Source: Marinitenerispora sediminis (lineage in GTDB: Bacteria > Actinomycetota > Actinomycetes > Streptosporangiales > Streptosporangiaceae). From it: 34,419 nucleotides of DNA. Made by a program: the position numbers and the translations under genes. The notes below the pieces were generated by a model. It had not been told where the DNA came from. It was given only the letters and a program-made list of their open reading frames with translations, and made no database searches. The DNA is taken from the NCBI RefSeq assembly GCF_003336425.1, contig NZ_QEIO01000051.1, positions 1-34,419 of the forward strand. The letters are read 5' to 3'. This document shows, piece by piece, positions 1 through 29,142 of the stretch; position 1 is the stretch's first letter; every line of letters starts with the position of its first letter.

Positions 1-3000
1 GTTGTCGTGCACGCCGACGCGCTCGACCCCCAGCACCTCGGCGAAGACCCCCGCCAGCACCCGCTCCGCCTCGGTACGCGGCGCGACGTGGCGCACCGCG
101 TCGTCGGCGCCCTCCTCCGGGGCCGGGAGCGCGCGCCGGTCGACCTTCCCGTTGGCGGTCACCGGCATGGCGTCCAGCCGGACCAGCACCGCCGGCACCA
201 GGTACTCCGGCAGCGTCTCGGCGAGCCGGGCGCGGACCGCGGCGGGGTCGGTGTCCGGCGCGTCGGCGACCAGGTAGCCGACCAGCCGGTGACCGCCGGA
301 CGCGGCCGGGCGCACCAGGACGGCGGCCTCGGCGACCCCGGGCTGGCGCAGCAGCGCGGCCTCCACCTCACCGGGCTCGATCCGGAAGCCGCGGATCTTC
401 ACCTGCGCGTCGGCCCGGCCGACGAACTCCAACTGGCCGTCAGCTCTCCAGCGCACCAGGTCCCCGGTCCGGTACAGCCGCTCCCCCGAACCCGACGGGT
501 CCGCGACGAACCGCTCGGCGGTCGCGTCCGGCCGCCGCCAATAGCCGCGGGCCACGCCCGCGCCTCCGACGTAGAGCTCGCCGACCACCCCGGCCGGGAC
601 CGCCCGCAGCAGCCCGTCCAGCACCAGCACCCGCATGCCGTCCAGCGGACCGCCGATCGGCGGGACCCCCGCGAGCGCGGCCTCGTCGAGGTCGGCGCAG
701 GTGGCGAAGGTGGTCGTCTCGGTCGGGCCGTACCCGTTGGCCACGCGGGTGTCCGGGCAGGCGGCGAGCACGTGGCGGACCGCGTTCGGGTTCGCCGCCT
801 CCCCACCGGTCAGCACCTCGCGGAGCCCCGCGAAGCACCCCGGCTCCTCGTGGGCGAACAGGTTGAACAGCGAGGCGGTCAGGAAGGCGCCGGTGACGGC
901 GTGCTCGGCGACCACGGCCGCGAACGCCCGGGCGTCCAGCCGCCCGGGCGGTGCGACGACCACGGTGCCGCCGGACAGCAGCGGCGCCCAGATCTCGTAG
1001 GTGGCGGCGTCGAAGGCGTGCGACGAGTGGAAGAGCACCCGGTCGTGCCGGCCGCCCCGCCACCGGCGGTCGGCGGCGAGCGCGGTGACGTCGCCGTGCG
1101 TGACGGCCACCCCCTTGGGAGCGCCACTCGACCCCGAGGTGAACATGACGTAGGCCAGGCGGCGCGGGTCCGGGCCGGCGGCGTCCGCGGCGGCACCGAC
1201 CACCGCGGGGGCCGCGCCGGCGGGCCGGCCGCGCTCGTCCAGGACCACGGTCGGCCGCTGCCCGCCGGCGGGCAGCCGGCCGGCCGAGGCGGTGTCGGTG
1301 AGGACGCACGCCGCGTCCGTCTCGGCGACCAGCCGGCCGATCCGCTCGGCCGGATCGCCGGGGTGCGCCGGCACGTAGCAGCCGCCGGCGCGCAGCACCG
1401 CGAGCATCGCGACCACGACGTGCGCGCCCCGCTCCAGGACCAGCACCACGGGCGACTCGGCGCGCACCCCGTGGGCACGCAGCCGGGCGGCCAGCGCGCG
1501 GGCGCGCTCGTCGAGCTCCGCGTAGGTCAGTTCGCCGTCCGGCCCCGCCAGCGCGCACGCGTCCGGGGTCGCCGCGACCTGCTGCGCGAACCGGTCCGTG
1601 ATCGCCACGGGCGGGGCCGCCGGGCCACCCCGGCCGCTCCTGCGCAGCAGCTCGCGTTCCGCGGCGGGCAGCAGGTCGAGTTCGGCCAGCCGGCGCTCGG
1701 GGTCGGCGACCGCCAGCGCGACGAGTTCCAGCAGCGCGTCGGCGAGGCGGGCGATCCGGTCGGCCGCGAAGAGGTCGGTGTTGTACTCGATCGCCACCCG
1801 CAGGCCGCCGTCGCGCTCCTGGAACTCGAAGACGAGGTCGAACAGCGACGACGTCCGGGGCAGCACCACCTCCTCGACGGCCAGCCCGTCCAGCTCGAAC
1901 CGCCCGCTGTGCGCGTTCTGCAGCACGACCATCGCCTGGAAGAGCGGGGTGCGGCTGGGGTCGCGCTCGGTGACCAGTTCCTCGACCAGCCGGTCGAACG
2001 GAACCTCGTTGTCGAACGCCTCCCGCACGGTGCCGCGCACGCCGGCGAGGAACGCGGCGACGGTGGCGGAGCGCTCCAGCACCAACCGGACCACCACCGG
2101 GTTGACGAAGAAGCCCACCAGGTCCTCGGTCTGGCGGTGGTAGCGCCCGGCGGAGGCCACCCCCACGGCGACGTCGCGGCTGCCCGACGCGGTGGCGAGC
2201 AGCAGCTGGGTGAGGGCGGTGAGCGTCACGAACAGCGTGCCGCCGTAGCGGCCCCCGAGCTCCCGCAGCGCGGCGGTGTCGGGTGCCGGCACCGTGCGGC
2301 GGTGCACGGCGCCGGCGGTCGTGCGGACCGGAGGGCGGGGATGGTCGGTCGGGAGCTCCAGCGGACGCACCCCGGCCAGCCGCTCCGCCCAGAAGTCGAG
2401 CCGGTCCCGCAGCCGGGGACCGGACCAGTGCCCGTCCTCCCACACCGCGAAGTCGGCGTAGCGCACCGGCAGGTCGGGCAGCGGTCCGGCGCCGGACCCG
2501 CTCTCGGCGCGGTACAGCGCGGCGAGGTCGCGGACCAGGACGTCCAGCGACCAGCCGTCGCTCACGATGTGGTGCGCGCTCAGCACCAGCACGTGCTCCT
2601 CGGCGGCGAGCCGGACCAGCAGCGCCCGGAACAGCGGTCCCCGCTCCAGGTCGAACGGCCGCTCCGCCTCGGCCGACAGCAGGGCGCCGAGCTCCGGTTC
2701 GCGGGCCACCGGGTCGAGGGCGCTCAGGTCCGCCTCGGTGAGGTCCACCCGCGCGTCGGCCGCGTCGCCGACCCGCTGCACCGGCGCGCCGTCCACCTCG
2801 TGGAAGGTGGTCCGCAGGCTCTCGTGCCGGAGGAGCAGCCCGTGCAGGGCGGCCGCCAGCGCGGCTGCCGACAGCGGGCCGCGCAGCCGGTACCCGCTCC
2901 CGGTGTAGTACTCGGTACCGCCGGTCTCGTACCGGTCCAGGAACCACAGTCGGCGCTGGGCGGAGGAGAGCGGCGCGGGACGGTCCGGGTCGGCGGGCGG

Positions 3001-4770
3001 GATCGCCCCGGCGCCGCCGGTGAGCCCGTGGGCGGCCAGGCCCGCGACGGTGGGGTGCGCGAACAGGGCGCGCCGGTCCGCGGCCGCGCCCAGGCGGGCC
3101 TCGATCCGGGAGAGGACGCGGGCGGCGAGGATCGAGTCGCCGCCGAGCTCGAAGAAGTCCGCGTGGATCCCGACCCGGGGCACGCCCAGCGCCGCCGCGA
3201 ACTCCTCGGCGATGGCGTGCTCGGTCGCGTCGCGGGGGGCGGAGTGGGGCTCCGCCGGGGCGGCGGCCTCCGGGGCGGGCAGCGCCGCCCGGTCGATCTT
3301 GCCGTTGACGGTGGTGGGCAGCGCGTCGAGCAGGACGGCCGCCGAGGGCACCATGTAGCCGGGCAGGGTCCGGCCGAGGGCGGCCCGGACGCCGGCGGGG
3401 GCGAGGCCGGCGCCGGGCGACGGCACGACGTAGGCCACCAGCCGCGGGCGGCCCGGGCGGTCCTCGCGCAGCACCACCGCCGCGTGCCGCACGCCGGGCA
3501 GCGCGGTGAGGGCCGCCTCGACCTCGCCCGGTTCGATCCGGTGGCCGCGCAGCTTGACCTGCTGGTCGGTCCGCCCGGCGAACTCCGGCTCGCCGTCGGG
3601 CCGCACCCGCGCCCGGTCGCCGGTCCGGTACATCCGGGCGCCCGGCGGCCCGAACGGGTCGGCGACGAACCGCTCCGCGGTCAGGCCCGGCCGCCGCCAG
3701 TACCCGCGGGCCAGTCCGGCTCCGCCCACGTACAGCTCACCGACCCCGCCGGGCCCGACCGGGCGCAGCCCGGCGTCCAGGACGTACACCGCGGTACCGT
3801 CGACCGCCCGGCCCAGCGGCGGGGTCCCGCCGCCGGACAGCGGAGCGCTCATCGTGGCGCAGACGGTGGTCTCCGTCGGCCCGTACCCGTTGAGGAGCAC
3901 GCGGCCGCGGGACCAGGTGTCCGCGAGTTCGCCGGGGCACGCCTCGCCGGCGACCATCATCGTGCCCAGGTCGGGGAGGTCCGCGCCGGGCAGGCCCGGC
4001 AGCACGGCCGGCGGCAGGACGGCGTGCGTGACGCGGTGCTCGCGCAGGGTGCGCGCGAGGGCGTCGCCGAGCAGCCGTTCGCGGGGCGGCACCACCAGGG
4101 CGGCGCCGTTGAGCAGCGCCATGCAGAGCTCGAAGACCGCGGCGTCGAACCCGGGCGAGGCGAACTGCAGCACGCGGGAGTCCGGCCGCACCCGCATGCG
4201 CTCGCGCTGCGTCCGGGCGAGGTCGGCGACGCCGCGGTGCGGCACCACGACGCCCTTCGGGCGTCCCGTCGACCCCGAGGTGTAGATCAGGTAGGCGGCG
4301 TCGTCCGGTCCGAGGTCCGCGCGGACCGGGCGGGCGGCGGTGTCGTCCGCCCGCTCGACCGGGATGCGCCGGACGCCCTCGGGTGGCGCGTCGAGCAGGC
4401 GGCCCTGGGCGAGCAGGAGCCGGGCACCGGAGTCGGCGAGCATGTACTCCAGCCGCCGCCTCGGATGCGCGGGGTCCAGCGGCAGGTACACGCCGCCGGC
4501 CCGCATGACGGCGAGCGGCGCGACGACCGATTCCGCGCCCCGGTGCACGCAGACCCCGACGAAGGCGCCCCGCGTGATCCCGCTCTCGACGAGGACCACG
4601 GCCAGCCGGTCCACCCGGTCGCGCAGCTCCGCGTAGCTCAGCGTCCCCGACTCCGTCACCAGCGCCGTCCCCTCCGGCCCGGCGAGCACCCGCTCGTCGA
4701 ACAGGTCCGGCACCGGCCGCGCCGCGCCGGGGACGGCGTCGCTCCGCTCGGCTTCGTGGGCAGCACGCAC
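1..4770 (-). CDS. Nonribosomal peptide synthetase, initiating subunit (A-PCP-C-A-PCP..., 3' end outside window)
   Basis: Modular enzyme that activates amino acids as adenylates, tethers them to phosphopantetheine and condenses them. The 1590 codons seen are open to the window edge. Domains: A1 about residues 18-490 (core [24 protein letters not shown]); PCP1 with the GGDS serine at residue 546; condensation domain about 600-1030 with HHIVSDG at 733-739; A2 about 1045-1530 ([28 protein letters not shown]); then the beginning of a second PCP. The absence of an N-terminal C domain makes this the starter subunit. Aligned by eye to GrsA, the A1 pocket reads roughly D-A-F-V-M-A-G-V-C, which I cannot assign. 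A2 reads D-A-Y-F-L-G-G-T-F, close to Val/Ile-type codes (inference). The GTG start at 4770 is preceded by GAAGGAG. It lies 168 nt downstream of the serine hydrolase gene on the same strand, probably one operon. Confidence 0.95.
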
Positions 4771-4938: not shown

Positions 4939-6294
4939 TCAGGCCGCGCGCCGGACGGCGGCTCCGGCGCGGCGCAGCGTCCGGCCGTTGTACTGCAGGG
5001 CGCCGGGCAGGAACCGGCCGGTGAACGCCGTTCCCGGGGCAGCGTCGCCGCCGTCGGCGGCGGCGGGGCGGACGGTGAAGGCGAGGTCGGCGCCGACCGT
5101 CAGCGCCCCGGAGAAGCCGTTGGAGACGTCGAACCGGAGGCCGCCCCGGGCGTCCGGGGCGACCCGGACCGCGATGTCGCCGTTGGCGTAGGCGCCGGCG
5201 AACCGTTCGACGGCGCACGGCGGCCGCCCGCTCGGTACGGGCTGGTGGTAGTGCCCGACGCGCAGTCCGGCGTTGTGGAGCTCCACGACCAGGTCCTCCC
5301 ACATCGCCAGCCCGCTGGTGGCGTTGGTGGTGAGCGCCACCGCGGTCCGGCCGGCGGGGTGCACCCGGACGTTGCAGGTGCCGCCGTCGAGCGTGCCGTC
5401 ATGGCCGAGCCACACGGTGTCGCCCGCCCGGTAGCGGCCCCAGCCGGCACCCCAGCCGTCGGCCAGGCCGAACGGGACGGCCGCGGGAACGGCGCGGGCC
5501 ATCTCCGCCAGCACCTCGGGCGCGGCGATGTCGGCGGCCAGGGCCGCGTCGTCCTCGGTCATGAAGGCGCGTGCGAAGTCCACCAGGTCGCCGGCGCCGC
5601 CCGCGAGGCCGCCGGCGGCGGCGAGGGTCGGCTCCACGTGGAAGTCCACCGGCGCCACCCGCCCGGTCCGGGCTTCCACCGTGTGGCCGCTCACCGTCGC
5701 CGGCCGGGCGCCGGGCCGGCGGGCGTCGTACACGAAGGCCAGGCGCAGACCGGTGGGCGCCGCCAGGTACCCCTCCAGCGCCTCCCACCAGTCGAGGCCG
5801 GTGAGCACCTCGACGAGATGGGCCGCGACCGCGTAGCCGGTGTTGGAGTAGGAGAACGCGGTGCCGGGCGCGCCGACCGGCTCCTGCCGCAGCACGGAGT
5901 CGAAGTGCCGGCGCAGCGAGGTTCCGCGCAGCGGCTCGCCCGCGTGGTCGGAGACCAGGCCCGCCGTGTGGCTGAGCAGCTGCCGCGCCGTCGCCGCGGC
6001 CAGCGGATGGTGCGGCGCGATCCTCCGCGCGCCGAGGTGCTCGCCGATCGGCCGGTCGAGGTCGAGCTCGCCCTCCTCCACCAGCTGCATGGCCAGGGCG
6101 GCGGTGAAGACCTTGCTGACGGATCCGAACGCGAACCGGGAGCGGGGCGAGACGGGTTCCGGGCTCTCGACGCGCTCCACGCCGTGGCACAGCTCGAACC
6201 GTTCACCCTCGCGGTAGATCGCGAGCTGCGCTCCCGGAACGCGGTGCCGGCAGGCCAGCTTCGCCAGCACGTCGGCCACGTGACCTCGGTCCAT
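4939..6294 (-). CDS. Serine hydrolase of beta-lactamase/PBP fold; probable stand-alone NRPS cyclase (SurE-like)
   Basis: 451 residues. Active-site motifs of the class C beta-lactamase/DD-peptidase fold are visible: SxxK at S58-K61 (GSVSK), YSN at 149-151, and GHDGT with H298. The remaining ~140 residues are beta-rich and resemble the lipocalin-like tail of PBP-type thioesterases. In SurE, which cyclises surugamide off the carrier protein, the catalytic residues are close to S63, K66, Y154, N156 and H305, so order and spacing agree well (recalled values, not computed). No Sec or lipoprotein signal is seen at the N terminus, which argues for cytoplasmic action rather than cell-wall work. The gene directly precedes the NRPS on the same strand. 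A strong ribosome site (GGAGGGGGAGAG) sits before the ATG at 6294. A generic esterase or resistance beta-lactamase is the alternative. Confidence 0.85.
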   Translation of the reverse strand: MDRGHVADVLAKLACRHRVPGAQLAIYREGERFELCHGVERVESPEPVSPRSRFAFGSVSKVFTAALAMQLVEEGELDLDRPIGEHLGARRIAPHHPLAAATARQLLSHTAGLVSDHAGEPLRGTSLRRHFDSVLRQEPVGAPGTAFSYSNTGYAVAAHLVEVLTGLDWWEALEGYLAAPTGLRLAFVYDARRPGARPATVSGHTVEARTGRVAPVDFHVEPTLAAAGGLAGGAGDLVDFARAFMTEDDAALAADIAAPEVLAEMARAVPAAVPFGLADGWGAGWGRYRAGDTVWLGHDGTLDGGTCNVRVHPAGRTAVALTTNATSGLAMWEDLVVELHNAGLRVGHYHQPVPSGRPPCAVERFAGAYANGDIAVRVAPDARGGLRFDVSNGFSGALTVGADLAFTVRPAAADGGDAAPGTAFTGRFLPGALQYNGRTLRRAGAAVRRAA

Positions 6295-20662: not shown

Positions 20663-21385
20663 GTGGGCGGGCAACCACGCTACCTGTGGGTGGCGGACCT
20701 GCTGCGCAAGCCCATCCTCAGCGGGGAGCTCCCGGCCGGCAGCCGGCTGCCGTCGCGCGCCCAGCTCGCGCGGCACTACGACGTCAGCGAGCAGGTGTCC
20801 CGGCATGCGCTGCGGCTGCTGGTCACCGAGGGGCTGGTCGAGAGCCGCCCGGGATCCGGGTACTACGTGCGCGGTGCCCGGGAGTCCGTCCGGTTCCCGC
20901 GCACCGACCGCTCGTCCGGCTCCGGCGTGCGCCCGCTGGACGAGGAGTACATCGGTACGGTGACCATGCCCGCGTGCGACCAGCTGGCCCGCCGCCTGCT
21001 GATCCGGGAGGGCGAGCCGCTCTACCGCACCCGCTACGTCGGCCGGGCCGACGGCGCGCCCGTCGCGGTGCACTCCTCCTGGGAGCCGACGCTGCTCACC
21101 CACAACACCACCCGCACGCCCGGCGACGCCCGGCCGGACACCAGCGTGCTGGAGCGGCTGTCCGGCGCGGGCGTCATCGTGGACCGGGTGGTCGAAGAGG
21201 TGTCGGTCCGTCCGCTGCGCGAGCCCGAGGCCGAGCTGCTGCAGACGACACCCGGCCTGACGGTCCTGGTCGTGGAGCGCACGCACTTCACCGGCCAGCG
21301 CCCGGTCGAGACCTCCGACCTCGTGGCTTCCGTGGACCGCTGCCGGCTGCTGTACCGGCTCAGCCTGTCCCGGAGCCAGCGGTAG
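20663..21385 (+). CDS. GntR-family regulator, HutC/UTRA subfamily
   Basis: 240 residues. The winged helix-turn-helix spans about 5-70 (LSGELPAGSRLPSRAQLARHY, then RLLVTEGLVESRPGSGYYV). A UTRA effector domain spans about 85-235, with EPLYRTRYVGRADGAPVAVHSSWEP and a closing FTGQRPVETSDLVASVDRCRLLYRL. The GTG start lies 2 nt after the peptidase stop without a clear ribosome site, so it is probably read by coupling. It likely regulates the peptidase operon; the effector is unknown. Confidence 0.9.
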   Translation: MGGQPRYLWVADLLRKPILSGELPAGSRLPSRAQLARHYDVSEQVSRHALRLLVTEGLVESRPGSGYYVRGARESVRFPRTDRSSGSGVRPLDEEYIGTVTMPACDQLARRLLIREGEPLYRTRYVGRADGAPVAVHSSWEPTLLTHNTTRTPGDARPDTSVLERLSGAGVIVDRVVEEVSVRPLREPEAELLQTTPGLTVLVVERTHFTGQRPVETSDLVASVDRCRLLYRLSLSRSQR

Positions 21386-21523
21386 CGGCCGCCTGACGGC
21401 GGCGGGCGGCCTGCCCCGGCCGGCCCGGCGCCGCCGCGCCGGGGGCCAGGTCCCGCCCGGGCGGGACGCCGCGCAGAACTTCTTCCGCGCCGAACCGAAC
21501 CGCTCGGCGCTTCGCCGCTACGT

Positions 21524-21564: not shown

Positions 21565-22371
21565 ATGACAGGTACCCGAGCCGTCCGGAGCCCCCGCGCC
21601 GCGGCGCGCGACGATCCGCCGCCCACGGTGGTCGTCCGCACGGAGCTCGCCCGGCTGCGGTACGGGTTCCCCCTCTGGTACACGCTGGCCGCACCGGTCG
21701 TCCTCGTGCTCCCGCTCGGCGCGGTCGCCGCGGGGTCGCCCGAGGGCCAGGCCGGGCTGCTGTGGGAGACGTGGCGCTCCGTCGTCCTGATGTTCTGGGG
21801 CGTGCTCGCGCCGATGGGCAGCGCGCTCTACGCCGGCCTGGCGGTGCGCCAGGACCAGGACGCGCGGCGGCTGCTGTACGGCTACGCCTTCCCCCGGCAC
21901 CGCCTGCTGCTCGGCCGGTTCGCCGCGCTGGCGCTGCTGGGCATGGCGCAGGCCCTTCTGCTCGGCGCGCTGCTCGCCGGGCTGGGCGTGCTGCTCGGCG
22001 CGCCCGGAGGCGCCGCCGCCGCGGTGGCGGCGGGCGTCGTGCTGACGTGGCTGGCCGGCCTCGGCGCCCTCGCGCTGTGCCTGCTCGTCGCGGAGATGTG
22101 GGGCTTCACCGCCACGATGTGCGTCGGGATCGCGGGGATGATGTTCGGCGCGCTGCTGGCCGACAAGAGCGTCTGGTGGGCGATTCCGCTGGCCTGGCCG
22201 ATGCGGGTCGTGGTGCCGATCGCCGACATCCACGCCAGCGGGGTGCCGCTGCCGCCGGGGGACCCGTTGTCGGACGCGGGCGTCGTCCCGGTCGCCCTCG
22301 CCATGTCATTCGTCCTCGCCGCGGTGCTGCTCGGTACGGCGTCCCGGCACGTCAACCGGAAGGAGCTGTAG
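21565..22371 (+). CDS. ABC-2 type transporter permease
   Basis: 268 residues with about six hydrophobic helices after a basic N terminus of ~35 residues. Layout and the DQDARRLLYGYAFPRHRLLLGRF cytoplasmic loop fit the ABC-2 permeases found with bacitracin- or lantibiotic-resistance type ATPases. It is followed directly (stop then ATG) by its ATPase gene. Its role, perhaps export or self-protection against a peptide or lipid, is inferred from the partner type only. No precursor peptide gene was seen nearby. The ATG has GAGGAG upstream, within a hairpin. Confidence 0.85.
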   Translation: MTGTRAVRSPRAAARDDPPPTVVVRTELARLRYGFPLWYTLAAPVVLVLPLGAVAAGSPEGQAGLLWETWRSVVLMFWGVLAPMGSALYAGLAVRQDQDARRLLYGYAFPRHRLLLGRFAALALLGMAQALLLGALLAGLGVLLGAPGGAAAAVAAGVVLTWLAGLGALALCLLVAEMWGFTATMCVGIAGMMFGALLADKSVWWAIPLAWPMRVVVPIADIHASGVPLPPGDPLSDAGVVPVALAMSFVLAAVLLGTASRHVNRKEL

Positions 22372-23094
22372 ATGGGCACGGCACTGCGGGTGCGGGCGCT
22401 GCGCAAGCGGATGGGGCGCCACCAGGCGCTGGACGGAGTGGACCTGCGGGTCGAGACCGGCGAGGTCTACGGCCTGCTGGGGCCCAACGGGGCGGGGAAG
22501 ACCACCCTCATGAAGATCATCGCCGGTCTGGCCCGCGCGGGCTCCGGCGAGGTGGAGCTGTTCGGCCGCCCGTTCGAACGCGGCGCGCTGCGCGACGTCG
22601 GCGCACTGGTGGTGGGGCCCGGGTTGTGGTCGCGGATGAACGCCGTCCAGCACCTGCGCCTGCACGCCCGGCTGCGCGGAGTCGACGGGTACGCGGCGGA
22701 CGCGGTCCCCGAGCTGCTGCGCACGGTCGGTCTGGAGGGAGTGGCCGAGCGCCGGGTGTCGGCGTACTCACTGGGGATGCGGTGGCGGCTGGGCATCGCG
22801 ATCGCGCTGCTCGCCCGCCCCCGGCTGCTGGTGCTGGACGAGCCCACCAACGGCCTGGACCCGGTGGGTATGCGTGACATGCGCGAGCTGCTGCGCCGGC
22901 TCGCCGGCGAGGGCGTCACCGTGTTCGTGTCCAGCCACCAGCTCGACCAGATCGCGCACACATGCGACCGGATCGGCGTGCTCGTGGCCGGCGCGACCCG
23001 CTACGAGGGCCCGTTGGACGGCCTCGCGGTGGACGGCGACCTCGAGCAGGGGTTCTTCGACCTGCTGGACCGCACATCCGCGGCCGTACGCTGA
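22372..23094 (+). CDS. ABC transporter ATP-binding protein (bacitracin/lantibiotic-resistance type)
   Basis: 240 residues. Walker A GPNGAGKTT (37-45), a variant signature YSLGMRWRLGIA (SLGMR at 133-137, in place of LSGGQ), Walker B VLDEPTNGLDP (D156-E157) and the switch histidine in VSSHQLDQIAH. The SLGM form of the signature is typical of BcrA- and lantibiotic-type ATPases. It powers the permease encoded immediately upstream. The ribosome site AAGGAG lies in the permease's last codons, so the two are co-translated. Confidence 0.93.
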   Translation: MGTALRVRALRKRMGRHQALDGVDLRVETGEVYGLLGPNGAGKTTLMKIIAGLARAGSGEVELFGRPFERGALRDVGALVVGPGLWSRMNAVQHLRLHARLRGVDGYAADAVPELLRTVGLEGVAERRVSAYSLGMRWRLGIAIALLARPRLLVLDEPTNGLDPVGMRDMRELLRRLAGEGVTVFVSSHQLDQIAHTCDRIGVLVAGATRYEGPLDGLAVDGDLEQGFFDLLDRTSAAVR

Positions 23095-23211: not shown

Positions 23212-23268
23212 ATGACGGTACCGCCCACCCGGACGGCCGTCCGCGGGATCCGGCGCCGTGCGTACTGA
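23212..23268 (+). CDS. Short leader ORF overlapping the sigma-factor start
   Basis: An 18-residue ORF (MTVPPTRTAVRGIRRRAY) with the strongest ribosome site in the area, AGGAGG at 23201-23206, 5 nt before its ATG. It ends 8 nt inside the sigma-factor frame. The sigma GTG at 23258 has no ribosome site of its own, and a TGA at 23213-23215 closes the sigma frame upstream. The sigma factor therefore probably depends on reinitiation from this leader. The peptide itself is Arg-rich and matches nothing I know. A sequencing frameshift is the alternative. Confidence 0.55.
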   Translation: MTVPPTRTAVRGIRRRAY

Positions 23269-23794
23269 CGACGACCTGCTGGCGGCGGTGGCGGCGGGCG
23301 ACCAGGACGCGCTGCGCGCCCTGTACGACGGCCACGCCGCCGCGATGCTGCGGCTGCTGCGCCGGCTCACGTCCGATCGGGGCGTCGCCGAGGAGATCCT
23401 GCAGGAGACGTGGCTGGCGGTGTGGCGTTCGGCCGACCGGTTCCGCGGCGAGGCGTCGGTGCGGGGCTGGCTGCTCGGCGTCGCCCGCCGGCAGGCCCAC
23501 AACCGGCTGCGCCGGTCCGAGCCGCCCGCCATCGACGTGGCCGAGGCGCCCGAGCCGGCCGACCTCGGAGCCGACGTCGAGGCGCGCGTCCTGGCCGCGG
23601 CCGGCCACGACGAGATCATGGCGGCGATCCGCGAACTGCCGCCGCGGCTGCGCGAGGTCGTCGTGCTCGCGCTGGTGGAGGAGCTGCCCTACCGGGACGT
23701 CGCCGAGGTCCTGGGCGTGCCGGTCGGCACGGTGAAGAGCCGCATGTCCGGCGCCCGGGCGCGGCTGGCGCGTTCGCTGACGAAAGGCCGGTGA
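23258..23794 (+). CDS. ECF (extracytoplasmic function) RNA polymerase sigma factor
   Basis: 178 residues. Sigma region 2 spans about 12-85 (ALYDGHAAAMLRLLRRLT, EEILQETWLAVWRSADRF, RGWLLGVARRQAHNRLRR). Region 4 spans about 125-172 (LPPRLREVVVLALVEELPYRDVAEVLGVPVGTVKSRM). No other sigma region is present, which is the ECF layout. It directs polymerase to a small regulon, controlled by the anti-sigma protein encoded next; its stop overlaps that gene's GTG (GTGA). GTG 23258 is the only possible start consistent with the region 2 position. It depends on the leader ORF for translation, as judged from the missing ribosome site. Confidence 0.93.
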   Translation: MRTDDDLLAAVAAGDQDALRALYDGHAAAMLRLLRRLTSDRGVAEEILQETWLAVWRSADRFRGEASVRGWLLGVARRQAHNRLRRSEPPAIDVAEAPEPADLGADVEARVLAAAGHDEIMAAIRELPPRLREVVVLALVEELPYRDVAEVLGVPVGTVKSRMSGARARLARSLTKGR

Positions 23795-24699
23795 CGGAGA
23801 TGAGCCATCTCGACGAGGAGCGGATCCAGGCCGCGGCGCGGGCGCGGCGGGCTGGCGGGAGGGCCGCGGACGAGGAGCACCTCGCCGCCTGCGCGGCCTG
23901 CCGGGAGCGGGTCGCGGCCCTGCGTGCCGTGGCGGCCGCCGCGGCGGCGGTCGACGCCGCGGAGACGGAGGCCGGGACACTGACCGTTCCCTCCTTCGAC
24001 GCGCTGGTGCTGCCGGGGCTGCGCGGCGCGCCGGCGGCCGCCCCCCTGCCTCCCGCGCCGAGGGCGGCCTGGCGGCTGACGCTGGAGCTGGTCGCGCGGC
24101 AGGCCCGCCTGGTGCCCGGGGCCCTGTGGCCGCTGACCGCGCTGGGCTTCGCGGCGGTACTGCTGCTGGCGTGGCGAGCCGGTCCGGTCGTCGGGTCACT
24201 CGTCCTGGGCCCGGGCGTGACCCTGCTGGTGACCCTGGGCGCACTCGCGGTCTGCGAGCCGCGCCGCGACCCGCGCCGCGAGGTGCTCGCCGCGATACCG
24301 ATCCCGCCGGTGGCTGTCTGGCTGGCCCGGCTGGCGTTCGTACTGGGGATCGACCTCGTCGCGGCGACCGCCGCGTCACTGCTGCTCGGCGCGCTCGACC
24401 GCGCGGCCGGCCCGCTCCCCCTGGTCGGAGCGTGGCTGGGCCCGGCCCTGCTCTCGGCGGGCCTCGCGGTGTTCGGTTCGGTCTGGCGCTCTCCGGCGCT
24501 CGGCGCGACGCTCGCCCTGACCGCCTGGGCGGCCGGCACGGTGGCGGCCCTCGGCGGGCTGGCGGACGGTGTCGGGCACGGGCTGGCGGCGGTGTGGGCG
24601 ACCAACCCGGCGACCCTCGCCCTCGCCTGTGCGCTGTTCGCCGCGGCCGCGTGGCTGGTCAGCCGCCCCGCCCGCACGCTGCCGGAGGGTCCGCTGTGA
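23791..24699 (+). CDS. Zinc-finger anti-sigma protein fused to a polytopic membrane domain
   Basis: 302 residues from GTG 23791, or 299 from ATG 23800. The N terminus has the H-x3-C-x2-C of zinc-binding anti-sigma domains (H30, C34, C37) within EEHLAACAACRERVAALRAV. Instead of the usual single membrane helix there are about six hydrophobic segments from residue 112 to 292. The loop DPRREVLAAIPIPPVAVWLARLA resembles loops in the two membrane proteins encoded at 25707 and 26360 (E-x-LA-x-x-P pattern). It therefore looks like an ABC-2-like membrane subunit carrying an anti-sigma head. It overlaps the sigma gene and probably holds the sigma factor at the membrane. Confidence 0.82.
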   Translation: MTEMSHLDEERIQAAARARRAGGRAADEEHLAACAACRERVAALRAVAAAAAAVDAAETEAGTLTVPSFDALVLPGLRGAPAAAPLPPAPRAAWRLTLELVARQARLVPGALWPLTALGFAAVLLLAWRAGPVVGSLVLGPGVTLLVTLGALAVCEPRRDPRREVLAAIPIPPVAVWLARLAFVLGIDLVAATAASLLLGALDRAAGPLPLVGAWLGPALLSAGLAVFGSVWRSPALGATLALTAWAAGTVAALGGLADGVGHGLAAVWATNPATLALACALFAAAAWLVSRPARTLPEGPL

Positions 24700-25706
24700 C
24701 GGGTCCCGCCCACCGCGCCGGACGCCGCGTGGGAAATCCGGGTCCGGAGGGCGTGGCCAGGGTGATGTCCGAGCACGGCCGTCCGCCCACGGTGGGAGAG
24801 CGGCGGTCCTCGGCGGCCCGCCGGGTTCCCGGAGCGCGGCCCGGGGGCCGCCCACCGTGGCACGGACACGCGGACGTCCGTTCCCGCCCCGGAGCCGCCA
24901 GCCGCCATGCCTTGGCCGGTCAGGTACCGCGGAGCCCGGCCCGAGCCGGGTGCCGAGGGCCGCGGGAGCCGTCGAACCCGCCCTGCGGGCGGACGCGCCC
25001 GCCCACGGGCCGGGCACGCGGTGTGCCGTGGACGCCGACCGCACTCCACGCATCCGCCCGTGGCCGGGCCGCGCGGTCCCCGGCTCGACGCGGCACGGGT
25101 GCGGCGCCCATGAGCGGCCGCCCGCCGACCCGGGGATCCGTCCGGTGCGCCCCGGCCGGACCCGCGGGGACTGGCGGCTGCCGCCGACAACGGCGGACGT
25201 CTCCGGGCCCGGCCGAGCCGGGAGGACCGCTCGGCTGTGGTGCGCGTCTGGACAGCACCCGGTCCCGGGACCGCCGGATGGCCGTCGGCCGCGCGCCGCG
25301 ACCCCGGGCCGGCCGCCCGCGCACGGCGTACCCTCGGTGCGGCCCTCGGGCCATGCGGCCGTCCGGGCACAGCCGCCCGCCGGCCCGGTGCTCCCGGCCG
25401 CCCGCCTTCATGCCCTCCGGACGCCGCGTACGGTCGCCCCGGCACCGGGTTGGCTCTGCCCCGGCGGACCGCCCCGCTCGCCGGCCTCCCGCCCCGACGC
25501 GGCGCTACTCCGGACCGGCGCGGCGCGTACGCGGGCCTCGGCGGCACCGCCGCTCCGTGTCCTCGCGACCGGATCCGCCGTGGTCGGCGGCGTTCTCCTC
25601 GGCGGGTCGACCGCGCCGTGCGGCCTCGTGAGCGGTTCGGCCGCACGCCGGCTCCCCGCCCGGTCCCCTGGGCCCCGGCCGGTGCCCGCGGCCCCAGGGG
25701 ACCGGA
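24700..25706. other. About 1 kb of very GC-rich DNA without a credible gene
   Basis: All open frames here are long only because stop codons are rare at this base composition. Their translations are Arg/Pro/Gly-rich with no domain and no ribosome sites. It separates the sigma/anti-sigma pair from the downstream ABC genes. It may hold a promoter for those genes near its right end. I cannot exclude a decayed gene. Confidence 0.5.
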
Positions 25707-26372
25707 GTGAACCGCCCGCCGCCGAGCCGCTACGTACCTGACGTGAAAGAGATCCACCTGCATGAGATCCGTCGATGCGGCCCGGCCGCCATCGTCCTGC
25801 CGCTGCTGGGCGCGTTCGTCGCGGTTGCGGCGGTCGGCGCCGCGTCAACGCGGGGCCCCGGGCCGGCTGGCTGGGCGGTGGCGGGCGCGACCGCCGGGTT
25901 GCCGCTGCTCGCGGGGGCGGCGGTGGTGAGCGTGCTCGACCGGGAGCGCTCGTTCGAACTGCTCGCCGGCACTCCCGTCCCGGTCCCCACCACCATGCGC
26001 CGCAGGTTGGCGGTCGTCGCCGGCTGCGTGACCGCGGGTGCGCTGGCGGTCGCCTCCGCGGCGTCGGCGGCGGGCGCGGTCGGCGGCCCGGCCGCGGCCG
26101 TCCTACTGCTGCCCGCCATGCTGGCGCCCGCTCTGCTGGTCGGCGGCACGGCGGCCTGGGCGTGGACGCGCCGGCGGTCGGCGGCGCCGGCCTCCGGGGC
26201 GGCGGTGGCGGTGTGGCTGGGCCATACCGCGTGGTGGGCGCCCAGTGTGCCGGACGGGCTGGCCTGGGCGGTGGCCGCGGCGGTCGGAGCCGTCCTGCTC
26301 CGGTCCGGTGCGCGCGCGATCGCCGACATGGAGCGGCTGCCGCCGGGAGGTGCCGGCTCATGGCGCGGCTGA
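25707..26372 (+). CDS. Polytopic membrane protein, ABC-2-like subunit
   Basis: 221 residues with about six hydrophobic segments. A loop after the second helix pair reads DRERSFELLAGTPVPVPTTMRRRLAVV, which has the E-x-LA-x-x-P motif also present in the anti-sigma fusion and in the following permease. It probably forms a heteromeric membrane channel with them. The start is uncertain: GTG 25707 (weak GGGGA upstream) or GTG 25743, giving VKEIHLHEIRRCGP. Its last 13 nt overlap the next gene. Confidence 0.75.
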   Translation: MNRPPPSRYVPDVKEIHLHEIRRCGPAAIVLPLLGAFVAVAAVGAASTRGPGPAGWAVAGATAGLPLLAGAAVVSVLDRERSFELLAGTPVPVPTTMRRRLAVVAGCVTAGALAVASAASAAGAVGGPAAAVLLLPAMLAPALLVGGTAAWAWTRRRSAAPASGAAVAVWLGHTAWWAPSVPDGLAWAVAAAVGAVLLRSGARAIADMERLPPGGAGSWRG

Positions 26373-27172
26373 TGGCACACCACCTCGGCGCAGCGGTCGC
26401 GACGGCGGCGGCGACCGCGCGCTGCGAGGCGCGCATGGCACTGCGCGGCCGGGCGCTCTGGCTCGCGGCGGTCCCCGTCACGCTGCTGGGGCTCCTGGTC
26501 TCGGTCACCCCGCTGACCGGCGGGATGCCGGCCCGGCTCACCGCCGGCGAGGCGGCCTCCTCCCTCGTGCTGCTGCTGCCGATCGGGGTCGGCGTCGCGT
26601 TCGCGGACCGGTTCCGGCGCAGCCGCGGTACCGGTATCGCCGAACTGCTGGCCGCCACTCCGCTGAGCACCGGAGGGTGGCTGCTCGGCACGTTCGCGGG
26701 CGCCCTGGCGGTCGCGCTGGTGCCGCTCGCGGTCCTCACCACCGTGCTGGCGGTACTGGTCGCGGTCCGCACGGGCGACCCCGCAGGGCTGGTGTGGACA
26801 CCGCTCGCCGTCGCCGCCGTCCCGCTGCCCGGCTGCCTGTGGGCGGCGGCGCTCTCGGCGACCCTGGGACTGCTGCTCCCGGTGCCTGCGAGCCGGGTGC
26901 TGGTGGTCCCGCTCTGGCTCTGGGCCACCGTATGGAACTTCACGCTGCTGTGGGTGCCGACCCCGACCGGCACGCTGCTGGCGCCCTCCGGGGAGTATCC
27001 GGCCGCCGCCTGGTTCGGCGTCCACCCGCCATGGGCCGGCGCGGGCCAGGTCGCCGGGCTGAGCCCCGGCCCCGGCGGCACCCCCGCGGCCCTGCTCTGG
27101 CTCGGCTGCACACTGGCGGCGGTCGCGGTGCTGCTGCTCTGCTCCCGCCTGATCCTCGTCTGGAAGAGGTAA
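26360..27172 (+). CDS. ABC transporter permease
   Basis: 270 residues with about six membrane segments and the loop RSRGTGIAELLAATPLSTGGWLLGTFAGA typical of ABC-2 permeases with two three-helix halves. ATG 26360 lies inside the end of the preceding gene and has GGGAGG upstream. It is followed 5 nt later by its ATPase. The substrate is unknown. Confidence 0.85.
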   Translation: MARLMAHHLGAAVATAAATARCEARMALRGRALWLAAVPVTLLGLLVSVTPLTGGMPARLTAGEAASSLVLLLPIGVGVAFADRFRRSRGTGIAELLAATPLSTGGWLLGTFAGALAVALVPLAVLTTVLAVLVAVRTGDPAGLVWTPLAVAAVPLPGCLWAAALSATLGLLLPVPASRVLVVPLWLWATVWNFTLLWVPTPTGTLLAPSGEYPAAAWFGVHPPWAGAGQVAGLSPGPGGTPAALLWLGCTLAAVAVLLLCSRLILVWKR

Positions 27173-27177
27173 CCGAG

Positions 27178-28053
27178 GTGGACGTCACCATCACGGATCT
27201 GACCAAGACCTTCGGCGGCCAGCCGGCGCTCGACGCGGTGAACCTCGCGTTCGGCGGCGGCATGCTCGGCCTGCTGGGGCCCAACGGAGCGGGCAAGACG
27301 ACGCTGATGCGGCTGCTCACCGGTGTCCTGCGCCCGACCTCGGGACGCGTCGTGGTAGGCGGGCACGACCTGGCCGAGCGGTCCGGCCGCACGGCGGTCA
27401 AGCGGATGCTGGGATACCTGCCGCAGCACCTGGAGCTGTACCCGGACCTGACGGCGCGCGAGTTCCTCGACTACATCGGACTGCTCAAGGGGATGGCGGA
27501 CCGGCGGGTCCGGCGGGCGCGGGCGGCGGAGCTGCTGGAGGAGGTGGGGATGTCCGCCGCCGCCGGACGCCGGCTGGGCGGCCTGTCGGGCGGCATGCGG
27601 CGCCGGGTGGGGATCGCGCAGGCGCTGATGGGCGACCCGCGTCTGATCGTGGTCGACGAGCCCACGGCCGGGCTCGACCCAGAGGAACGCATGCGGTTCC
27701 GGTCCCTGCTCGCCGGGCTCGGTGAGCGGCGCACCGTGCTGCTCTCGACGCACATCCTCGACGACGTGGCGCAGACCTGCCCGGACGTGGCGGTGCTCGC
27801 GGCCGGCCGGGTCGTCTACCACGGCCCCACGAGCGGCCTCACCGGGGCCGCCGAGGGGCGCACCTACCAGGTCGACACCGCGGGCCCGCAGCCCGCGGGC
27901 GACCTCACGATCGCCAACGCGGTCGCGATCGCCGGCGGTATGCGCTACCGGGTGGTCGCCGAAACCGCCCCGCCGGACGGACTCCCGGTCGCCCCGGTGC
28001 TGGAGGACGGGTACGCCGCCGTGATGCGCGACGCGCGCGGCCGGAGGAGGTGA
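27178..28053 (+). CDS. ABC transporter ATP-binding protein
   Basis: 291 residues. Walker A GPNGAGKTT (34-42), Q-loop GYLPQ (from 79), signature LSGGM (136-140), Walker B VVDEPTAGLDP (D160-E161), switch histidine H192. A C-terminal extension of ~70 residues, as in DrrA/NatA-type ATPases, follows. It drives the permease(s) encoded just upstream. The GTG start follows AAGAGGTAACCGAG. It is last in its operon and converges with the permease remnant. Confidence 0.93.
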   Translation: MDVTITDLTKTFGGQPALDAVNLAFGGGMLGLLGPNGAGKTTLMRLLTGVLRPTSGRVVVGGHDLAERSGRTAVKRMLGYLPQHLELYPDLTAREFLDYIGLLKGMADRRVRRARAAELLEEVGMSAAAGRRLGGLSGGMRRRVGIAQALMGDPRLIVVDEPTAGLDPEERMRFRSLLAGLGERRTVLLSTHILDDVAQTCPDVAVLAAGRVVYHGPTSGLTGAAEGRTYQVDTAGPQPAGDLTIANAVAIAGGMRYRVVAETAPPDGLPVAPVLEDGYAAVMRDARGRRR

Positions 28054-28076: not shown

Positions 28077-28096
28077 ACCGGTAGCCGGAGACCGGT
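28077..28096. terminator. Possible bidirectional hairpin between convergent genes
   Basis: Two copies of the self-complementary ACCGGT (28077-28082 and 28091-28096) can pair across 8 nt, between the ATPase stop and the stop of the minus-strand permease remnant. The stem is short. Confidence 0.3.
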
Positions 28097-28533
28097 CAAG
28101 CGGCGAGGGAGCGCATCGAGCGCATCCCACCCGCGACCGCGGCTCCGGCCACCGCGGTTGCCACGAGGAAGGCGACCGGCACCGCCCCGCTCGCGAGCTG
28201 CCCGCCGAGCAGCGCGCGCTCGGCCTCGACGACGTAGCTGAGCGGGTTCGCCCGCGAGAGCGCGTACAGCCGGGTCGGCGCCATGTCCATGGGCAGCAGC
28301 ACGCCCGAGAGCAGCATCAGCGGCATGCTGATGCCCTGGAGCACCCCTGCGAAGACGTGGTTCTGCTTGGTGGCAATCGCCAGCACGTACGACAGCGTCC
28401 CGATCCCGGTTCCCAGGATGACGAGCAGCAGCCCGAGGGCGAGGCCGACCGGCGGCACCCGCAGCCCCAGCGGGACGGAGGCGGCGATGATCAGCACCGA
28501 CTGGACCCCGCGGCCGCGATCCGCGGCCCGGGC
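28096..28533 (-). pseudogene. Truncated ABC-2 permease (C-terminal half only)
   Basis: About 145 codons encode the last helices of a DrrB-type drug-export permease: LLVILGTGIGTLSYVLAIATKQ, GISMPLMLLSGVLLPMDMAP, LSRANPLSYVVEAERALL, and a last helix. The N-terminal ~100-120 residues and the usual partner ATPase gene are missing. The frame continues upstream without a start codon straight into the stop codon of the PadR gene, in the same reading frame. The typical order PadR-ATPase-permease suggests one internal deletion removed the ATPase and the permease front. An ATG at 28497 could give a 133-residue protein, unlikely to transport alone. Confidence 0.75.
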
Positions 28534-28536
28534 GCT

Positions 28537-29142
28537 TCAGTCCACGCCGGCGTCCGGGACCTCGGCCGGAGCACCGAAGGTGGCGCCCGCCTCGCCGGCC
28601 ATCACGTACGTGCCCGCCTCCAGCCGCTCGATGAGCCGCCGGGTCCACGCGGCGCCGCCCTGTGTCGTGTCGACCCACAGCCCGTGCAGCTCCCGGACGT
28701 GCGCCGGGGCCCCCGAGAGGCCCGGGCGCTCCAGGAGCGCGGACAGGCGGTCGAGAGCCGCCTCCAGCTCGGCCAGCCGCCGGCGCAGCAGCCGCACGGC
28801 CTCGCGCCGGGTCAGCGCCGGCAGCAGCGTCAGACCGGCGCCGAGGACGTCGGGCCGGTGGTCGGCGCTGCCGAGTGCGTCGCGCAGCAGGCGCATGAAC
28901 TCTGCCTCGCCGTCCTCCGTCAGCTCGTAGACGGTGCGGGCCGGCGCGGAGTCCCCGGGCTCCGCGGTGGCGCTGAGCTTGCCTTCCTTGGTCAGCTGCT
29001 TCAGCGCGTGGTAGATGGAGCCCCACTTGACGTTGGCCCACTGCTCGGTGCCCCAGGAGAGGAGCTCGCGGCCCACCCGGTAGCCGTGTGCCCGCCCGTG
29101 CATGCGCACCACGCCGAGGACCAGCAGCCGCGTCGCCGACAT
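28537..29142 (-). CDS. PadR-family transcriptional regulator
   Basis: 201 residues. The winged helix domain spans about 1-85: LLVLGVVRMHGRAHGYRVGREL, then WGSIYHALKQLTKEGKL and RTVYELTEDGEAEF, the PadR pattern. A helical C-terminal dimerisation part follows (ALTRREAVRLLRRRLAELEAALDRLSALL). Such regulators commonly repress a neighbouring drug-export ABC operon; here only a permease remnant is left downstream. ATG 29142 follows GGGGAGACG; the frame is open upstream but the family start matches MSATRLLVLGV. Confidence 0.9.
   Translation of the reverse strand: MSATRLLVLGVVRMHGRAHGYRVGRELLSWGTEQWANVKWGSIYHALKQLTKEGKLSATAEPGDSAPARTVYELTEDGEAEFMRLLRDALGSADHRPDVLGAGLTLLPALTRREAVRLLRRRLAELEAALDRLSALLERPGLSGAPAHVRELHGLWVDTTQGGAAWTRRLIERLEAGTYVMAGEAGATFGAPAEVPDAGVD

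What the first reader, a model, noticed from the sequence alone, without database searches (positions are those of the whole stretch)
23212..28053. Transporter-coupled ECF sigma system with an anti-sigma/permease fusion
The anti-sigma protein combines an HxxxCxxC zinc-finger head with about six membrane helices. Its loop motif recurs in two membrane proteins encoded downstream with an ABC ATPase. The set (sigma, anti-sigma, membrane subunits, ATPase, permease) parallels the Bacillus sigY-yxlCDEFG operon. It suggests that transporter state, not a protease cascade alone, may release the sigma factor.
Basis: partly seen in the sequence, partly recalled or inferred. Interest (0 to 1): 0.7.

Follow-up and report, generated by a model that had tools for sequence, protein, structure and literature searches.

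The report
Anti-sigma factor built into ABC exporter
An actinobacterium carries a gene-switch protein whose membrane part looks like a subunit of a drug-exporter-type pump, so the pump itself may decide when the genes that make it are switched on.

Summary
23258-23794 encodes an ECF sigma factor; 23791-24699 encodes an HxxxCxxC anti-sigma head plus six membrane helices. The membrane part has a predicted ABC-2-type exporter fold (best Z 14.2; the 50 listed entries are ABC transporters), and its family is homologous to the perm1 family along its length (hhalign 97.4%; controls at most 2.1%). In 58 related loci the sigma gene is directly upstream in 55, and an ABC ATPase lies within three genes downstream in 51, directly next in 19. 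Twelve of those 19 ATPases were put in a tree and lie apart from the perm2-linked ones. New here: the published MibX promoter consensus GAACC-N15-GCTAC lies before both transporter operons (21497, 25709) and recurs in relatives. The locus resembles the regulation-and-immunity half of the microbisporicin cluster, without lantibiotic genes. The start given at 25707 overlaps this promoter; perm1 starts at 25743. Best reading: an autoregulated ECF system whose anti-sigma factor is an exporter subunit. Architecture and probable regulon are well supported; release of sigma by transporter state is inferred, not shown. The SigY parallel is loose.

The parts
21497..21521 (+). Predicted sigma-dependent promoter P1, GAACC-N15-GCTAC followed by GTA
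   Evidence: Exact match to the published MibX consensus; the extended form occurs twice in the own genome, both in this window
21565..22371 (+). permU, six-helix permease, MutE/EpiE (LanE)-like (start 21565 or 21628)
   Evidence: TIGR03732 4.8e-27, 94.8 bits, below the 145.2-bit cut-off
22372..23094 (+). atpU, ABC ATPase, lantibiotic-immunity (LanF)-like
   Evidence: TIGR03740 1.6e-65, 220.9 bits, below the 309.75-bit cut-off
23258..23794 (+). ECF sigma factor (regions 2 and 4)
23791..24699 (+). Anti-sigma/permease fusion: HxxxCxxC head (about residues 1-90), ABC-2-type membrane domain (about 88-297), coupling-type loop 155-181
24700..25708 (.). About 1 kb without coding signature between the fusion and promoter P2; 27 relatives have -4 to 125 nt between these two genes
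   Evidence: only short partial matches elsewhere in the own genome
25709..25733 (+).
25743..26372 (+). perm1, ABC-2-like membrane protein; its family is homologous to the membrane part of the fusion; GTG start 34 nt after the first base of P2, so probably leaderless
26360..27172 (+). perm2, ABC-2 permease with NosY-like predicted fold
   Evidence: AlphaFold pTM 0.74, pLDDT 72.1; NosY Z 18.8, Foldseek probability 1.00
27178..28053 (+). atpD, ABC ATPase of the GldA/DrrA-like group
   Evidence: ABC_tran 1.1e-32; TIGR03522 3.7e-60, 203.9 bits, below the 402.6-bit cut-off

Best explanation
The locus is an autoregulated ECF sigma system for two ABC exporters, in which the anti-sigma factor is itself an exporter membrane subunit. 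The cytoplasmic head holds the sigma factor. The membrane domain pairs with the ATPase (and, in this layout, perhaps with perm1/perm2) through a conserved coupling-type loop that should lie on the same side of the membrane as the head. When the transporter engages its substrate, probably a membrane-active peptide or similar antibiotic, its conformational or ATP cycle changes the head and frees sigma. Sigma then transcribes both transporter operons from GAACC-N15-GCTAC promoters, which closes a feed-forward loop damped by newly made anti-sigma. Shown here by computation: architecture, predicted fold, family homology with perm1, conserved linkage, a separate lineage for ATPases that directly follow the fusion, promoter motif. 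Inferred: sigma binding, topology, assembly with the ATPase, substrate class, release by transporter state.
For: Head: the four PDB sequences found by the 41-row family profile at E<=1 are ChrR (two), 3hug_B (recalled as RslA) and RsiW, all weak (0.016-0.025) and all on the N-terminal part; zf-HC2 in 9 of 41 and NF052375 'anti-sigma factor' in 11 of 41 members. Membrane part: VIA-align Z 14.2 to ABCG5/8, 12.9 to NosY, 11.8 to CcmB, the 50 listed entries being ABC transporters; Foldseek probability 1.00 and 0.99 to CcmB. hhalign to the perm1 family 97.4%, E 9.7e-12; reversed columns 0.2%, five shuffles at most 0.1%, permU 2.1%. Coupling-type loop is the best-conserved region. Sigma directly upstream in 55 of 58 loci, ATPase within three genes in 51 of 58, directly next in 19 of 58. 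Twelve of those 19 ATPases lie apart from the 37 perm2-linked ones in the tree (one or two groups); 6 loci carry both kinds; the 12 keep Walker A and B. Promoter: 75 motif places in 46 loci plus window against 15 and 5 for two reversed controls; extended motif 61 places in 295 genomes against 12 for the reversed control, 35 of 61 within 10 kb of a fusion gene.
Against: No interaction or release was tested. The window protein itself reaches no Pfam or NCBIfam family at E<=0.01. Foldseek E-values are modest (best 0.12, none at 0.001); the model is moderate (pLDDT 73.9) and below 50 in part of the loop (161-163, 165-169) and in the linker; the tool notes that helical proteins can reach Z 13-14 without a clear relative. 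The bare core motif is not enriched genome-wide (19 places against 28 for the control); 6 of 100 shuffles of the window hold as many loose motifs; 26 of 61 extended matches lie away from a listed fusion gene. HxxxCxxC is absent in 19 of 46 relatives, or 18 without a frameshifted one. In the window's own layout one ATPase serves three possible membrane subunits, so the fusion need not be one of the active pair.
Confidence: 0.55

Rival explanations
1. The membrane domain is a transporter-derived receptor that no longer couples to an ATPase. It binds the drug or senses envelope damage directly, as proposed for MibW, and releases sigma without any ATP cycle; the transporters are only regulated outputs.
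For: The published MibX/MibW model has peptide or envelope stress sensed by MibW (passages); in the window's layout a possible transporter (perm1, perm2, ATPase) exists without the fusion; in 7 of 58 loci no ATPase was found within three genes of the same run, though in one of these a phage-like insert splits the ATPase gene.
Against: The coupling-type loop is the best-conserved region, and in 19 of 58 loci an ATPase directly follows the fusion, 12 of them shown to be a separate lineage.
Confidence: 0.27
2. The membrane domain is an anchor; sigma is released by regulated proteolysis of the anti-sigma factor, as for RsiW or RseA, with the transporters as ordinary regulon members.
For: Proteolysis is a common release route for membrane anti-sigma factors (established knowledge; a passage on RseA in PMC8103513).
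Against: A conserved six-helix ABC-2-type domain with a conserved coupling-type loop is more than an anchor needs; the model shows no sizeable extracytoplasmic domain.
Confidence: 0.12
3. The zinc finger is a redox or metal sensor of the ZAS type, and the permease fusion serves only localisation.
For: HxxxCxxC head with weak profile similarity to ChrR.
Against: Relatives with the same gene order lack HxxxCxxC (19 of 46 listed without it), so zinc is not needed for the shared function; PMC7406223 (section 6, part 1) argues that the motif may be structural rather than sensing in membrane-bound members.
Confidence: 0.05

Closest known systems
MibX/MibW with MibEF and MibJYZ (microbisporicin / NAI-107 cluster, Microbispora)
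   Same: ECF sigma plus membrane anti-sigma; identical promoter consensus GAACC-N15-GCTAC; a LanEF-like transporter and a JYZ efflux operon among the outputs (passages)
   Different: No lantibiotic synthesis genes found in the window; whether MibW has an ABC-2 domain could not be checked (sequence not reached)
Bacillus subtilis sigY-yxlCDEFG operon (recalled)
   Same: ECF sigma, anti-sigma and ABC ATPase/permease in one operon
   Different: Here the anti-sigma is fused to the permease; the sigma is far below the SigY model cut-off (78.4 against 194 bits)
ECF257 (named in PMC8999054, passage)
   Same: ECF sigma with ABC transporters in its genetic neighbourhood
   Different: [quoted passage not shown] group membership of the window sigma was not tested
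Zinc class I anti-sigma factors (ChrR, RslA, RsiW)
   Same: Hx3Cx2C head; weak profile similarity to their solved structures
   Different: Membrane part is a six-helix exporter-type domain
ABC-2 / type V exporter membrane subunits (NosY, CcmB, ABCG)
   Same: Predicted fold and coupling-type loop
   Different: Carries an N-terminal anti-sigma head
BceAB-BceS flux-sensing modules (recalled)
   Same: An ABC transporter would act as the sensor for a regulator of its own expression
   Different: Histidine kinase there; sigma/anti-sigma here

Membership tests
Class I zinc anti-sigma factors | Hx3Cx2C motif in an N-terminal helical domain | tested here: met
   HLAACAAC at residues 30-37; helices 9-20, 25-33, 35-60 in the model
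Class I zinc anti-sigma factors | Sequence similarity to known members | tested here: inconclusive
   Family profile hits ChrR, 3hug_B and RsiW only weakly, E 0.016-0.025; NF052375 in 11 of 41 members but not in the window protein
Class I zinc anti-sigma factors | Gene next to an ECF sigma gene | tested here: met
   4-nt overlap in the window; 55 of 58 loci
Class I zinc anti-sigma factors | Binds and inhibits the cognate sigma | not testable with these tools
   No co-folding or binding assay available
ABC-2 / type V exporter membrane domains | Six-helix fold of the family | tested here: met
   Predicted model: Z up to 14.2, the 50 listed entries being ABC transporters (the last, an LptB2FGC chain, is of another ABC type by recall); Foldseek probability 1.00
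ABC-2 / type V exporter membrane domains | Coupling element in the cytoplasmic loop between helices 2 and 3 | tested here: inconclusive
   Basic, conserved loop 155-181 with near-invariant D160, E164, P173 and invariant R180, but partly below pLDDT 50; contact with an ATPase not tested
ABC-2 / type V exporter membrane domains | Match to a curated ABC-2 sequence model | tested here: inconclusive
   13.5 bits against a 31.6-bit cut-off; 2 of 41 members match at E<=0.01, best 1.3e-4
MibX/MibW lantibiotic regulators | Promoter consensus GAACC-N15-GCTAC at own regulon | tested here: met
   Two exact sites in the window and sites across relatives
MibX/MibW lantibiotic regulators | Located in a lantibiotic biosynthesis cluster | tested here: not met
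   No lantibiotic synthesis family among 27 of 29 predicted genes of the window scanned with Pfam; the two genes after 33181 were not scanned, and short precursor genes would be missed
MibX/MibW lantibiotic regulators | Sequence homology with MibX and MibW | not tested
SigY/Yxl system | Sigma reaches the SigY model cut-off | tested here: not met
   78.4 bits against 194
SigY/Yxl system | ABC ATPase and permease linked to the sigma gene | tested here: met

The most novel reading that the evidence does not exclude
An ABC exporter is itself the anti-sigma factor: the fusion protein and an ATPase of its own form a working transporter whose ATP or transport cycle gates release of the sigma factor, giving a flux-sensing ECF system. 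By the three gene layouts found this would be widespread in one actinobacterial family and present in at least two further families of the class (loci L105-L109).
Probability: 0.4. Interest if true: 0.82.

Novelty: new variant of a known kind. Interest (0 to 1): 0.64.

Why it matters
How membrane anti-sigma factors such as MibW sense antibiotics is open. If the membrane part of such a protein is an exporter subunit with its own ATPase, the question becomes testable by an ATPase mutant and a reporter. It would join ECF signalling to the flux-sensing logic known for two-component systems (recalled), and it supplies a promoter motif with which regulons can be listed across actinomycetes.

Tried and rejected
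SigY parallel: rejected as a family assignment. Perm2 as a close sequence relative of the fusion: not supported (8.8%; 0.2% with thin profiles); related by predicted fold only. First profile comparisons with alignments of 4-12 sequences were too thin (fusion against perm1 then 12.1%). A looser ECF pattern GGAACN14-18GTC gave 16 matches against 6.2 expected, none of them between 18945 and 27445, and was dropped. The core motif alone is not enriched in the own genome (19 against 28); only the form followed by GTA is informative. LanB (PF04738) was sought in 295 genomes in the hope of a microbisporicin-type cluster for comparison; 202 match, the printed list was cut, and no systematic comparison with fusion loci was made. 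Plasmids: no match. G021's gene in two pieces: read as a one-base frameshift at a G run, not two genes; it was not mended.

Mended after re-checking: the sigma count was first taken with a model built from the upstream genes themselves (56 of 58, partly circular); by BLAST to the window sigma it is 55 of 58. ATPase counts by BLAST stayed at 51.

Rows left out: the 46 loci were chosen among matches that cover the membrane part; matches confined to the zinc finger, and places in G116, G145, G218 and G245, were not fetched. The 12 loci were chosen from the list. A6 holds 41 of 47 possible rows (L013, L086, L091, L100, L103, L105 left out as frameshifted, near-copy or cut short). hhalign's own filter used 44 of the 46 fusion rows. 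One perm2-linked row of the tree, L014_1, is a 627-aa long-branch protein and probably mislabelled, so 36 of the 37 are sound. The output was cut in the middle; the full set was re-tabulated. The 35 of 61 uses 51 fusion places typed, not every place those calls listed.
Full report
WHAT IS THERE. Gene prediction by codon usage gives, all on the plus strand: GntR/UTRA regulator 20690-21385, permease permU 21565-22371 (start 21565 or 21628), ATPase atpU 22372-23094, ECF sigma 23258-23794, anti-sigma/permease 23791-24699, perm1 25743-26372, perm2 26360-27172, ATPase atpD 27178-28053. Pfam and NCBIfam confirm the sigma factor and the two ATPases. permU and atpU resemble lantibiotic-immunity transporter subunits (TIGR03732 4.8e-27, TIGR03740 1.6e-65), both below the curated cut-offs.

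THE FUSION. About 90 N-terminal residues carry HLAACAAC. A profile of 41 sequences finds four PDB sequences at E<=1: ChrR (two), 3hug_B (which I recall as RslA) and RsiW, all weak (0.016-0.025), all on the N-terminal part. Of the 41, 9 match zf-HC2 and 11 match the NCBIfam anti-sigma model; the window protein itself matches neither at E<=0.01. The AlphaFold model of the whole protein (pLDDT 73.9, pTM 0.65) was compared with solved structures. Foldseek ranks CcmB first (probability 1.00, E 0.12; no match at E<=0.001). VIA-align, a second look at Foldseek's own ranking, places ABCG5/8 (Z 14.2, rmsd 4.0, 205 residues), NosY (12.9) and CcmB (11.8) on about residues 88-297; the 50 entries listed are ABC transporters. 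Helical proteins can reach Z 13-14 without clear relatives according to the tool's note, so the uniformity of the list matters more than one value.

RELATION TO THE NEIGHBOURS. With alignments of 46 fusion, 27 perm1 and 28 perm2 sequences from relatives (window rows not included), hhalign relates the fusion family to the perm1 family with 97.4% probability, E 9.7e-12, over 202 columns. Reversed columns give 0.2%, five column shuffles at most 0.1%, permU 2.1%. The result holds for both subsets of the fusion (type II 89.8% over 173 columns, the rest 97.8% over 203). Perm2 gives 8.8%, but the model of the window's perm2 matches NosY (Z 18.8; Foldseek probability 1.00). So the fusion looks like an anti-sigma head joined to a perm1-type subunit.

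CONSERVATION. A profile of five sequences (window and four relatives) matches 58 of 297 genomes of the family and 25 of 394 of the class at E<=1e-3, some by the zinc finger alone. Of 58 loci examined (46 fetched; 12), the sigma gene is directly upstream in 55 by BLAST to the window sigma, an ABC ATPase is within three genes downstream in 51, and directly next in 19. Three layouts occur. Type I: sigma, fusion, one or two permeases, ATPase (32 loci, including those nearest the window). Type II: sigma, fusion, ATPase (12). Type III: sigma, fusion without zinc finger, ATPase, then a permease of 459-522 residues (7; sigma 37-48% identical; no GAACC-N-GCTAC site at the sigma or fusion gene). Seven are 'other'; in one of these (G030) a phage-like insert splits the ATPase gene. 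Named relatives are Nocardiopsis (four), Streptomonospora, Murinocardiopsis, a Nocardiopsaceae bacterium and an actinomycete MAG (8 loci). HxxxCxxC is absent in 19 of 46 relatives, one of them frameshifted, so zinc is not essential.

AN ATPASE OF ITS OWN. In a tree of 66 ATPases the 12 type II ATPases that directly follow the fusion lie apart, in one or two groups, from the 37 perm2-linked ones and the 17 atpU (the 7 type III ATPases were not in the tree). Six loci carry both kinds (L010, L072, L074, L076, L077, L079). The 12 keep Walker A and Walker B. This is the strongest genomic hint that the fusion works with an ATPase.

THE PROMOTER. [quoted passage not shown] The window holds two such sites, at 21497 before permU and at 25709 before perm1 (looser pattern, 2 found, 0.5 expected, 6 of 100 shuffles as many). 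Both continue with GTA, and this extended form occurs nowhere else in the own genome, although the bare core occurs 19 times against 28 for the control. Across 46 loci plus window, GAACC-N14-16-[GT]CTAC occurs 75 times against 15 and 5 for two reversed controls. Many of these lie about 35 nt before the start of the sigma gene or perm1, in the latter case often inside the end of the fusion gene, or 65-161 nt before permU; some lie inside unrelated genes. In 295 genomes the extended form occurs 61 times against 12 for the reversed control; 35 of 61 lie within 10 kb of a listed fusion gene. So two predicted promoters would express permU-atpU-sigma-fusion and perm1-perm2-atpD. In the mib cluster similar outputs occur: MibEF has a role in immunity (passage), and MlbJYZ is described as an efflux pump (PMC6283892, passage). 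No lantibiotic synthesis family was found in 27 of 29 predicted genes of the window.

MECHANISM. Shown by computation: architecture, predicted fold, family homology, linkage, a separate ATPase lineage, motif. Inferred: sigma binding, topology, complex formation, substrate class, and release by transporter state. I hold the gated-transporter reading at 0.55, with a receptor-only membrane domain as main rival (0.27), then proteolysis (0.12) and zinc sensing (0.05).

NOVELTY. It works like MibX/MibW but lies outside a lantibiotic cluster, and it could not be compared with MibW itself. Ten library searches showed no anti-sigma/ABC-2 permease fusion in the titles and abstract starts listed; the main ECF reclassification paper is not held. 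PMC7406223 (section 6, part 1 of 2, and passages) classifies anti-sigma domains and counts their membrane helices; the text seen names no ABC permease. PMC8999054 (one passage) mentions ABC transporters near ECF257, among sigma factors without an anti-sigma factor. I therefore file it as a new variant of a known kind.

Noticed in passing
L012:8037-8200 and L189:5029-7286 (genome G030): A phage-like stretch of about 39 kb with a 508-aa serine-recombinase-like gene (label from sequence) splits the ATPase gene that follows the anti-sigma fusion, in the codons around the P-loop; the rest of the ATPase, permU and atpU lie beyond it.
   Followed up: partly
24700-25742: About 1 kb of DNA (0.80-0.83 G+C by codon position) without coding signature between the fusion and perm1; 27 relatives have -4 to 125 nt there. 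Only short partial matches elsewhere in the own genome.
   Followed up: partly
L013:9078-10038 (genome G021): The fusion gene of this relative is split by an apparent one-base frameshift at a G run; natural decay or sequencing error cannot be told apart.
   Followed up: no
28096-28497 and 28537-29142, minus strand: A 133-aa fragment matching only positions 117-208 of the 211-position ABC2_membrane model stands beside a PadR regulator, without an ATPase gene next to it: a possible decayed transporter operon.
   Followed up: partly
L203-L209: Seven loci with another layout: sigma, zinc-free fusion whose heads share a DxDLDRVWxGVAxxVWRR-like stretch, ATPase, a permease of about 500 residues; possibly a different short anti-sigma domain on the same membrane fold.
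   Followed up: partly
L010, L062, L067-L069, L072-L074, L077, L079: In these type II loci two permU-like genes precede atpU, as in a LanE-LanG-LanF set; where looked at (L010, L072, L073, L074, L077, L079) a GAACC-N-GCTAC site lies before them.
   Followed up: partly
1-4713, minus strand: Part of a non-ribosomal peptide synthetase gene (condensation, AMP-binding and carrier domains) at the window edge, next to a beta-lactamase-family gene at 4939-6279.
   Followed up: no
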